A stretch of 64,000 nt of DNA, taken from the NCBI RefSeq assembly GCF_001244545.1, contig NZ_LN852694.1:192172-256171 (forward strand), written 5' to 3'. The position numbers and the translations under genes are program-made. The notes under the pieces are model-generated. The model saw only the letters and a program-made list of their open reading frames with translations, was not told the DNA's origin and made no database searches. Source of the DNA: Candidatus Stoquefichus sp. SB1 (GTDB taxonomy: Bacteria; Bacillota_I; Bacilli_A; Erysipelotrichales; Coprobacillaceae). The number at the start of each line of letters is the position of its first letter. Position 1 is the stretch's first letter. Below, in pieces: positions 3,685-64,000 of this stretch.

Positions 3685-5178
3685 ATGTTGAATAAAAAAA
3701 AGAAGATTATCATTGGAGGGACAACTGCAGCTGTTCTCATTGTGAGTGGCATTGCAGGTGGAGGTATGGCTTTGAATGCATTGCAAAATGGAACAGGTCA
3801 ATTGAATGATGGTGCCGTTGCTTTAGAACAAGTTGCAGAAAAAATGGTTAATGGTGCAACAACCCTGAAAGATGGAAGTGCAGGATTATATACTGGAATT
3901 GATCAGTATACTCAAGGTGTGAGTGCATTGGGTGAGGGCTCTGGACAACTCAATGAAGGTATGAAAAAATATACAGGTGCAGTGTCTTTGTTGAAAGAAG
4001 GAGCAGATGGATTATATAACGGTGTATATGGTTATACAAATGCAGTGAATGGAATGAATCAGGGAATTCAAGTCCTTGATCAGGGTGCTACTGTTTTAGA
4101 ACAAGGAACAAGTGGGTTATCAACTGGAGCAGAGAAATTAAGTGAAGGAACCAAAACATTGTATGGTGGTATGAAGGTATTGGATGAGAATTCATCAGCA
4201 CTTTTATCAGCACCCAATATGATGATAGAAGGTTTGACACAATTAAAAAAAGGATTAACTGTTGTTCCTAGTGAAGCAGATATTCAAAAATTAATGCAAG
4301 GTTCTTCAACTGTGAAAACATCATTAAATGGAATGAGTCAAATAGCAAATGGTGTCAATAGTACAGTTTTAACTTTAGAAACAACAATGAATGGTTTAAA
4401 ACAAACAGCTTATAGTTCACAAGAATTAAATCAATTTGCCCAATTATTAGCGACCAATCCAAGTGCCGCATTAGCTTTACCTCAAGCTCAAGATATGCTT
4501 CAAGCACTTGCAGGTGCATATGTAGCAACCAACACAGCATTAGATGGTGCATCATCAACACTATCAGGTATGAAAACTTATACAGGGCAGTTATCTGCTG
4601 GGATGTCACAATTAAATCAAAATTACCAGTATATTGATGCTGGAGTCCAATCATTATCAGCATTACCAACAGCTGCTAATACTTTAGGACAGGGAATTGA
4701 TGGTATGATGAATGTGATTGAAAAAGAAAAAGGTGGTATTGAAACTTATGTGAATGGTGTAAAGACTGCTTATGAAGGGACAAAAGTATTAAATCATGGA
4801 GCAAATGAATTGAAAAATGGAACTGATGTATTGGATAGTGGGGTTCAAAAACTGACATCAGGAATTCATGAACTTTATCAAGGTTCAAGTCAATTAAGTC
4901 AAGTAGGAGGATCACTGAAAGCGGGATCGTTAACTTTGATGCAAAGTTTAGCACAATTACATCAAACGAGTTCACCTCTTTTACTAGGAATGAATACACT
5001 CTATGTAGGAATTCAGAAACTAGATGAGATAAAAGCCGATCTTATGAAAGGTGCATTAGCCATTAAAGATGGGAATTCTGGGGTTAATGATGCAATGAAT
5101 GGTCTTTATGAAGGCATTAAAACACTCAAAAAAGGGACAAACCAATTGTATTCTACAGTTGGAGGAAAAGAAAAATAA
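3685..5178 (+). CDS. Membrane-anchored Leu/Gly heptad-repeat protein
   Basis: 497 aa. A basic start ('MLNKKKKIIIGG') and one hydrophobic segment (about 8-30) form a signal anchor. The rest is built from the x-x-x-Leu-x-x-Gly heptads (TIGR03057 type) also seen in YhgE/Pip proteins and RND-related surface proteins, for example 'LKDGSAGLYTG', 'LGEGSGQLNEG' and 'LSEGTKTLYGG'. These heptads dominate about residues 35-170 and 365-490, with a less regular, Ala-rich middle. An extended helical surface structure is likely. It lacks the multi-TM half of YhgE. It is first in an operon with mupG and a ROK kinase, so a cell-wall or adhesion role is possible, but nothing in the sequence proves one. Confidence 0.75.
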   Translation: MLNKKKKIIIGGTTAAVLIVSGIAGGGMALNALQNGTGQLNDGAVALEQVAEKMVNGATTLKDGSAGLYTGIDQYTQGVSALGEGSGQLNEGMKKYTGAVSLLKEGADGLYNGVYGYTNAVNGMNQGIQVLDQGATVLEQGTSGLSTGAEKLSEGTKTLYGGMKVLDENSSALLSAPNMMIEGLTQLKKGLTVVPSEADIQKLMQGSSTVKTSLNGMSQIANGVNSTVLTLETTMNGLKQTAYSSQELNQFAQLLATNPSAALALPQAQDMLQALAGAYVATNTALDGASSTLSGMKTYTGQLSAGMSQLNQNYQYIDAGVQSLSALPTAANTLGQGIDGMMNVIEKEKGGIETYVNGVKTAYEGTKVLNHGANELKNGTDVLDSGVQKLTSGIHELYQGSSQLSQVGGSLKAGSLTLMQSLAQLHQTSSPLLLGMNTLYVGIQKLDEIKADLMKGALAIKDGNSGVNDAMNGLYEGIKTLKKGTNQLYSTVGGKEK

Positions 5179-62674: not shown

Positions 62675-63829
62675 TTATAGCTTTATTTTATTTATTTCTG
62701 TATACAACTTGTTAATAAAAATGTCTGTATATACATCATCTGTAAGGTCATTAGATTTATGGCCAACAATTCTTTTTCTTGCAAACGGATCCATATTATA
62801 AAGTTTTGCAAGTGATACAAATGTATGTCTACATGCGTAAGGAACTTTGTTATAATTCAGTTCTTTCATCAATGGCTCAAATAAATCACGATGATATTTA
62901 TTTACAATATTATCACACTGTTTGATAATAAGATAATTAGGATGTTTTTCCAACAAATCTATTATAATAGGTTTAATTGTATCATGAATAGGGACTATTC
63001 TATCTCTCCCTGCCTCTGTTTTAGAGCCAGTAATCATATAAGATATCTTTCTCTTTACACCATCATCATTGCAATCTACATCTATATAAATTTTACTTGT
63101 GTCTATTTCTAGAAGTTCGTTAGGTCTGCAACCAGTAAAAATATATAATAATGCATATTTAGATTCTAATGTATTATGCTTCATAATGTTACGCACTTCG
63201 TCAACTGTAAATGATTTTCTTTTATCCGTATTATCTTCTTTTTTATCGTAACCTTTTAATGATATATCTATAAATTCAGTATAATCATCATCGCGGCTAA
63301 TATATTGATGTTTAACAGCATATTTGAAAATATCCATAGTAACACCTTTCACATGAGATAAAGTACCTGTTCCTAGTCCTGCCTCTTTAATGTTGTCAAA
63401 GATGCTTTGTAAATCGTAAAGATTAATAGTGTTTATATTTTTATTATGTATGTCTGTTAATTTATTAAACCAACTCTTTACAGAGGCTTTGTTATTTTGA
63501 AACTTATATTTTTCTTCAAAAAGAATATAAAATATTTCTTTAAATGTAAGCATATCGGGAGTGATTGATTGCATGACTTGTTCGGTCAAATCCTGATCCA
63601 ATGAATTTGCTTGAGTTGCATTAATTTTCTTTTTCTTCATGAGAGTATATAGTTTTATAAAATCCTCTGCTTCTTCTCTTGTCTCAAAGTACGCAATATA
63701 TTTTTGTTTTTGCGAATAAGACATTTCTACAGTTTCACGGATCGCAAAAGGTTTAGAACGATTGCCTTTTAATTGTGTTATAGATAACGCACCATTAGCA
63801 CGTCTTTTGAGTTTTCTTTTCTTAGGCAT
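62675..63829 (-). CDS. int: Tyrosine-type site-specific integrase
   Basis: I chose the ATG at 63829 because AAAGG lies 9 bases upstream; the one at 63838 is next to the site. 384 aa. N-terminal arm-binding part, SAM-like core-binding domain (about 90-200) and catalytic domain with 'TGCRPNELLEI' (Arg I), 'ITGSKTEAGRDRIVPI' (Lys), 'CRHTFVSLAKL' (His-x-x-Arg) and 'VGHKSNDLTDDVYTDI' (His, nucleophile Tyr). It is complete and presumably active. The element probably extends beyond the right edge. Confidence 0.93.
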   Translation of the reverse strand: MPKKRKLKRRANGALSITQLKGNRSKPFAIRETVEMSYSQKQKYIAYFETREEAEDFIKLYTLMKKKKINATQANSLDQDLTEQVMQSITPDMLTFKEIFYILFEEKYKFQNNKASVKSWFNKLTDIHNKNINTINLYDLQSIFDNIKEAGLGTGTLSHVKGVTMDIFKYAVKHQYISRDDDYTEFIDISLKGYDKKEDNTDKRKSFTVDEVRNIMKHNTLESKYALLYIFTGCRPNELLEIDTSKIYIDVDCNDDGVKRKISYMITGSKTEAGRDRIVPIHDTIKPIIIDLLEKHPNYLIIKQCDNIVNKYHRDLFEPLMKELNYNKVPYACRHTFVSLAKLYNMDPFARKRIVGHKSNDLTDDVYTDIFINKLYTEINKIKL

Positions 63830-63855
63830 ATACAACATCCTTTCTTTTTAAAACC

Positions 63856-63884
63856 TTGTACACGCCCGATAAATATGCTAAAAT
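63856..63884 (+). promoter_or_regulatory. Promoter divergent from the integrase
   Basis: TTGTAC and TAAAAT are 17 bases apart on the plus strand, 27 bases from the integrase start, reading away from it. Confidence 0.55.
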
Positions 63885-63890
63885 TGGGTA

Positions 63891-63986
63891 TGTAAAAGGA
63901 TATCCTTAATAACGTTAAATTCTTTTTACATTAGAGATATTACCAGTATCTCTTTGGCACATGTTACCAGCATGTGTCTTTTTTTA
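63891..63986 (+). ncRNA. Candidate structured RNA with twin TTACCAG loops
   Basis: From just after a plausible promoter the plus strand can fold into three stems. TGTAAAA (63891) pairs with TTTTTACA (ends 63930). AGAGATA/TATCTCT (63933-63953) follows. CACATG/CATGTG (63958-63976) is last, and a T-run after it acts as a terminator. The second and third stems carry the identical 7-base loop TTACCAG. There is no ORF inside. Identical loops on unrelated stems suggest a conserved binding site for a protein or RNA, perhaps controlling the integrase. The family is not known to me. Confidence 0.5.
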
Positions 63987-64000
63987 TATTCCTAATAATT

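What the first reader, a model, noticed from the sequence alone, without database searches (positions are those of the whole stretch)
63856..63986. Candidate new structured RNA divergent from the integrase
A promoter-like TTGTAC-17-TAAAAT is followed within about 100 bases by three consecutive stems, the last a terminator. Two stems of different sequence present the same loop TTACCAG. Keeping the loop constant while the stems differ is a mark of selection on RNA, not of a simple terminator. It may be a small regulatory RNA or an anti-integrase control element.
Basis: partly seen in the sequence, partly recalled or inferred. Interest (0 to 1): 0.65.

Follow-up and report, generated by a model that had tools for sequence, protein, structure and literature searches.

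The report
New prophage RNA with twin loops
Next to the integration gene of many gut-bacterial prophages lies an undescribed small RNA of about 95 bases whose two hairpins almost always carry the same loop, and it probably acts as an antisense brake on that gene, although its target has not been shown.

Summary
Window 63856-63985 holds a promoter, three stems and a terminator, and two stems of different sequence carry the loop TTACCAG. It is not chance: about 47 relatives, nearly all from Erysipelotrichales prophages, share the architecture, with heavy covariation (157 double-sided changes; at most 19 in slid controls). Forty-one of 47 fold as three helices. HP3 has 68 G-U pairs and no A-C mismatches, so the plus-strand RNA is what is selected. 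It varies between elements (TTGGTAG, TTGGCG, TTGCCAG, TTACCAG, CTGGTAA, TTGCAG and others) but is the same in both hairpins of one RNA in 38 of 42 cases (12.8 expected). Apart from a few second copies and degenerate loci, the RNA is divergent from the integrase, tyrosine or serine type. On its other side is a gene on the integrase strand, often of lysogeny or defence, with no terminator on that strand (0 of 26). Rfam has no match. Best explanation: a counter-transcribed antisense RNA against the integrase part of the leftward lysogeny transcript, pairing through kissing loops. The RNA family is well supported; the mechanism is inferred (about 0.5). Why both loops match is open.

The parts
63856..63861 (+). 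-35-like hexamer TTGTAC of the RNA promoter; relatives use TTGCCT 17-18 bases before the -10
   Evidence: sequence; promoters of relatives
63879..63884 (+). -10 hexamer TAAAAT
   Evidence: TAAAAT or TATAAT in nearly all relatives
63890..63931 (+). stem 1, A/U-rich 5' hairpin with arms 63890-63900 and 63921-63931; RNA start inferred near 63890
   Evidence: the stem is kept with other sequences, e.g. GTACAATAAAA/TTTTATTGTAC in L298 and L300 and GCATAGTAAAA/TTTTACTATGC in L462
63933..63953 (+). hairpin 2, loop TTACCAG 63940-63946
63956..63978 (+). hairpin 3, terminator stem, loop TTACCAG 63964-63970
63979..63985 (+). T-run, inferred 3' end of the RNA (about 95 nt)
62675..63838 (-). tyrosine integrase divergent from the RNA; the likely start is the second ATG (63829), whose open frame begins 60 bases before the RNA
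   Evidence: Phage_integrase, below the Pfam cut-off; 38-47% identical relatives
63984..64000 (-). 3' end of a SHOCT/bacterial-PH-domain gene (continues beyond the window), the last gene before integrase on the leftward strand; its stop codon overlaps the T-run
   Evidence: then Mrr-like and CI-like HTH genes on the same strand

Best explanation
The locus encodes a new small RNA of about 95 nt, made of three hairpins and ending in its own terminator, carried by prophages of Erysipelotrichales. It most likely works as a counter-transcribed antisense RNA. The leftward lysogeny transcript (repressor, accessory or defence genes, then integrase) has no detectable terminator before the integrase, so its integrase part would carry the exact complement of the RNA. 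The RNA would first touch that leader by loop-loop kissing through its two equal loops, then form a duplex, leading to decay or early termination and keeping integrase low in the lysogen. Shown by computation: the RNA structure and its strand, covariation, coupled loops, position, and the absence of an opposing terminator. Inferred: transcription, pairing, the effect on integrase, and the reason the loops are equal (possibly so that one RNA also acts on second copies or co-resident prophages).
For: Covariation: 98.6% of cells paired, 16 of 17 pairs with double-sided changes, 157 such cells against 36 in shuffles and at most 19 in slid controls. HP3 carries 68 G-U and 0 A-C. 41 of 47 members fold as three helices, median z -5.4. 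Position: divergent from recombinases of several unrelated kinds, tyrosine and serine, so the link is to the integrase role, not to one protein. Plus-strand terminator in 25 of 26; minus-strand terminator between the neighbouring gene and integrase in 0 of 26; integrase open frames begin only 34-80 bases from the RNA; no minus-strand promoter-like site between the two genes in this prophage. Loop chemistry: in every UUNNNAG or CUNNNAA loop either the loop or its complement begins with YUNR, the U-turn motif found in one partner of loop-loop antisense systems (PMC4485353). Where the two loops of one RNA differ, the change is mostly C/U at one position, neutral for pairing with G. The window's genome carries a second such RNA with unrelated arms but the same rare loop, and phage G050 carries two copies with the same loop.
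Against: A cis antisense RNA matches its target whatever its loops, so loop equality needs a further reason. G-U pairs in HP3 make the complementary leader hairpin weaker. A few copies sit beside other lysogeny genes (G050, G058, L292). L105 has a C/G loop difference, and TTGCCG and TTGCAG loops lack YUNR on either strand. A weak or unusual integrase promoter inside the RNA gene is not excluded. There are no expression data.
Confidence: 0.5

Rival explanations
1. A trans-acting antisense RNA whose two equal loops bind one target elsewhere: a host mRNA, a superinfecting phage's mRNA, or the RNA of another prophage. Loop types would be specificity or immunity groups, like plasmid incompatibility groups.
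For: Loops are coupled within an RNA yet vary between RNAs (38 of 42 against 12.8 expected). Their cores fall into complementary classes (GGU/ACC, GGC/GCC), and CTGGTAA in L280 is the exact complement of the window's loop. Second copies and co-resident elements often share a loop (G000, G013, G005, G050).
Against: No loop complement recurs in untranslated regions of the same phages (own 10, control 10) or as a tandem site. Co-resident G041 and G200 pairs have different loops. The near-constant link to integrase is unexplained.
Confidence: 0.27
2. A decoy or docking RNA for a phage or host protein that recognises the loops.
For: Tandem hairpins with one loop are typical of protein-sequestering RNAs (general knowledge); all loops keep the frame YU...AG, AA or G.
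Against: The inner three bases change completely, including to their reverse complement, which a protein site rarely tolerates. The integrase itself can be tyrosine or serine type, and closely similar integrases (L056, L058) go with different loops. No candidate protein was identified.
Confidence: 0.13
3. Only a terminator with a decorative extra hairpin, ending leaky transcription from the integrase region.
For: HP3 plus T-run is a good terminator.
Against: Conserved promoter, stem 1, HP2 and loop coupling, none needed for termination.
Confidence: 0.05
4. DNA-level sites (operator or recombinase core site) that happen to be palindromic.
For: Inverted repeats around a 7-bp core resemble tyrosine-recombinase core sites (general knowledge); an imperfect dyad surrounds the -10 box in relatives.
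Against: 68 G-U against 0 A-C in HP3 is RNA selection on one strand; the element also sits beside serine recombinases, and the integrase lies between it and the contig end in several prophage contigs.
Confidence: 0.05

Closest known systems
Counter-transcribed antisense RNAs of plasmid replication control (R1 CopA, ColE1 RNAI, pIP501 RNAIII)
   Same: Short structured RNA transcribed against a leader; terminator hairpin as a recognition hairpin; YUNR-type recognition loops; pIP501 pairs through two 3' stem-loops; loop mutations make new incompatibility groups (PMC4485353)
   Different: Here in prophages, beside integrases rather than rep genes; the two loops of one RNA are equal; target not shown; no Rfam ctRNA family reaches its cut-off
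Phage antisense RNAs of lysogeny control (P22 sar, P1/P7 C4, lambda OOP) - from general knowledge
   Same: Small prophage RNA in the immunity region thought to act by pairing
   Different: Those act on antirepressor or cII transcripts; here the neighbour is the integrase, and an antirepressor-like gene is present only in a minority of these phages
Lacto-int and int-alpA RNA motifs (candidate sRNAs near integrases) - from general knowledge
   Same: Structured candidate sRNA next to phage integrase genes
   Different: No Rfam family of this kind matched the window (E up to 10) or 18 relatives (E up to 5); no paper describing them was found in the library

Membership tests
Any RNA family in Rfam 15 | score at or above the curated gathering threshold | tested here: not met
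   Window: no relevant match at E up to 10. 18 relatives: only tRNAs pass; best other ctRNA_pND324 at 33.7 bits against a cut-off of 45, and its alignment covers AT-rich stems, not the twin loops
ctRNA_pND324 (RF00238) | gathering score 45 bits | tested here: not met
   29.4-33.7 bits in two members
Counter-transcribed antisense RNA (functional class) | transcribed from the strand opposite its target, overlapping it | tested here: inconclusive
   Opposite strand, and no terminator found before integrase in 26 of 26 loci; actual transcripts unknown
Counter-transcribed antisense RNA (functional class) | recognition loop with YUNR in sense or antisense RNA | tested here: met
   Holds for all UUNNNAG and CUNNNAA loops and for UUGGCG, hence for most members; not for UUGCCG or UUGCAG (loops; rule from PMC4485353)
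Counter-transcribed antisense RNA (functional class) | represses its target | not testable with these tools
   needs expression data and genetics
P22 sar / P1 C4 type RNA | antirepressor gene as target | tested here: not met
   An antirepressor-like family occurs in only 5 of 14 phages scanned, and the loop complement lies near its start in only one phage
Lacto-int / int-alpA motifs | match to the published consensus | tested here: inconclusive
   no such match in the Rfam scans, but I did not verify that both models are in the library
Type III toxin-antitoxin RNA (ToxI) | tandem RNA repeats followed by a ToxN-like gene on the same strand | tested here: not met
   neighbouring genes are on the opposite strand and of many unrelated kinds

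The most novel reading that the evidence does not exclude
The RNAs form a kissing-loop specificity system among prophages: each has one 'password' loop displayed twice or three times, complementary loop types exist in other prophages (UUACCAG in the window, CUGGUAA in L280; UUGCCAG and UUGGCG both in genome G041), and pairing in trans decides compatibility, cross-immunity or cross-control of integration between prophages in one cell.
Probability: 0.12. Interest if true: 0.9.

Novelty: new variant of a known kind. Interest (0 to 1): 0.62.

Why it matters
It is an undescribed RNA family with strong covariation, found beside integrases of unrelated mechanism, so it marks a control point of the integration/excision decision that is independent of the recombinase. 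The coupled but variable loops are a rare natural record of what looks like recognition by base pairing and give a direct handle for finding the partner. They would also make prophage compatibility in gut Erysipelotrichales testable with loop swaps.

Tried and rejected
Targets in the same phage: loop complements in untranslated regions and tandem complement sites showed nothing above control loops. The exact complement CTACCAA is rare on the lytic strand of GGT phages but about as rare in others, so no avoidance signal. tRNA anticodon mimicry (loop YU-NNN-A) was rejected, because ACC, ACU, AGU, AGC and GCG are not usual bacterial anticodons (own knowledge). A small ORF in the RNA was rejected: no start or frame is kept (from the sequences). 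Att core site: rejected (serine recombinases too). Rfam ctRNA and cow-rumen-4 resemblance: AT-rich stems only. Single-sequence integrase scans found nothing; an alignment query did.

Full report
The window ends inside a prophage; the rest was taken from the same genome. The integrase (62675-63838, minus strand) stands at the left end. To the right on the same strand follow a SHOCT/bacterial-PH gene, an Mrr-type nuclease gene and two HTH genes, one CI-like; rightward genes include ERF and SSB. The candidate RNA lies in the gap of about 150 bases between the integrase start and the SHOCT gene's end, on the plus strand, so it is divergent from the one and convergent with the other.

The described parts are present at the stated places. 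The fold beats all 200 shuffles (z -4.56). The two hairpins with a shared loop are the only strong pair of that kind in 39 kb.

Relatives were found by integrase homology, by the conserved string ACGTAAAAGGACTTT and then by a covariance model. In 316 genomes of the order, 25 carry the RNA. Even samples of about 390 genomes of the class and of the phylum gave the same order plus one weak hit (E 0.005) in another family. That the order is Erysipelotrichales is read from the titles of matching named records (Faecalibacillus, Thomasclavelia, Erysipelotrichaceae MAGs). IMG/VR holds further members, among them L462 and L466 beside serine recombinases and L470 with a fully different stem 1.

All share a promoter with TAAAAT or TATAAT, an A/U-rich stem 1, hairpin 2, terminator hairpin 3 and a T-run. 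On the model-fitted alignment of 43 distinct sequences, 98.6% of cells pair, 16 of 17 pairs show double-sided change, and there are 157 double-sided cells; shuffles average 36 and slid versions reach at most 19. The alignment leans towards the model, and related sequences are counted several times, so the numbers are an upper view. Independent single-sequence folding gives three top-level helices in 41 of 47, and four where an extra hairpin is inserted, with median z -5.4. Hairpin 3 holds 68 G-U pairs and no A-C mismatch. My stem walk accepts G-U freely and a mismatch only once, which favours G-U, but the column counts agree: helix 3 is 99.2% paired with many U-G cells. This fixes the plus strand as the selected RNA.

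The loops are the surprising part. Across elements the loop is TTGGTAG (most), TTGGCG, TTGCCAG, TTACCAG, TTGCAG, TTGCCG or CTGGTAA, yet within an element the two loops are identical in 38 of 42 cases against 12.8 in shuffles, none of 20000 reaching it; after collapsing related stems it is 25 of 29 against 7.1 (eight pairs that the automatic parser missed were read by eye, and in three of the collapsed keys the stem letters are the parser's wrong hairpin). Some elements carry a third such hairpin (L096, L124, L276). Where the loops differ, it is mostly C against U at one position (L284, the second copy in G058, L298, L300), which is neutral for pairing with a G. The window's genome has a second element with unrelated arms but the same rare loop. 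Phage G050 has two copies with the same loop. L280 carries the exact complement of the window's loop in both hairpins. These facts point to recognition by base pairing.

Neighbours: on one side stands a recombinase, tyrosine of several unrelated kinds or serine; exceptions are the second copies (G050, G058, L292) and degenerate loci (L280, L289). On the other side usually stands a gene on the integrase strand: SHOCT/PH, Thoeris ThsB TIR, Abi_2, Fic, MazF-like, or directly an S24-type repressor. Of 26 loci, 25 have a plus-strand terminator in the RNA and none has a minus-strand terminator between that gene and the integrase, whose open frame begins only 34-80 bases away. No minus-strand promoter-like site lies between the two genes in this prophage. 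Integrase messages should therefore come through the RNA gene and carry its complement.

Mechanism: this is the layout of a counter-transcribed antisense RNA. In loop-loop antisense systems one partner's loop has the U-turn motif YUNR; two 3' stem-loops act together in pIP501; and loop mutations create new incompatibility groups (PMC4485353). Any UUNNNAG loop gives YUNR either in itself or in its complement, so the constant frame with a variable core fits this class. The step from layout to function is inference. What the cis model does not explain is why both loops of one RNA must match; a partner in trans, or cross-control between copies, would. Searches for such a partner in the same phages gave nothing above controls.

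Known families: no Rfam family reaches its threshold. It works like a plasmid ctRNA, but membership in any described family was tested and not met, or could not be settled. The finding is a new family within the broad kind of mobile-element antisense or regulatory RNAs.

Noticed in passing
G000:C6:916756-916842 (L274:1501-1587): Second copy of the RNA in the window's own genome, beside an unrelated tyrosine integrase, with the same rare TTACCAG loops but different stems and promoter.
   Followed up: yes
L260:12596-12718 (minus); L241:5106-5227 (minus); L292:1501-1589: Second copies within lysogeny modules (beside ImmA/Mrr-like genes or a lipoprotein gene) rather than beside integrase; loops as in, or close to, the first copy.
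   Followed up: partly
L145 and L154, region upstream of the integrase match at 4001: Lachnospiraceae-type prophages with a single integrase-divergent terminator hairpin whose loop is TTGGTAG or CTGGTAA; perhaps a reduced relative of this RNA.
   Followed up: no
L212 upstream of the integrase (about 3810-3947): Element in which hairpin 2 is lost and the hairpin 3 loop has shrunk to TTGAG, as if the loops decay together.
   Followed up: no
L270 and L292, right-hand neighbour genes: Similar TIR-like genes sit beside the RNA in different prophages (the L270 one matches Thoeris ThsB); the slot between integrase and repressor looks like a hotspot for defence genes (also Abi_2, Fic, MazF-like).
   Followed up: partly
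L002:2729-3889 (just right of the window): Prophage protein joining an FtsK gamma domain to an Mrr-type nuclease domain.
   Followed up: no
window 63839-63900 and relatives: Int leader and RNA 5' end share an AAAGGA(C/T) string in inverted orientation, and in relatives an imperfect dyad (ACGTGCTC...GAGTACGT) flanks the RNA -10 box: possible operator.
   Followed up: no
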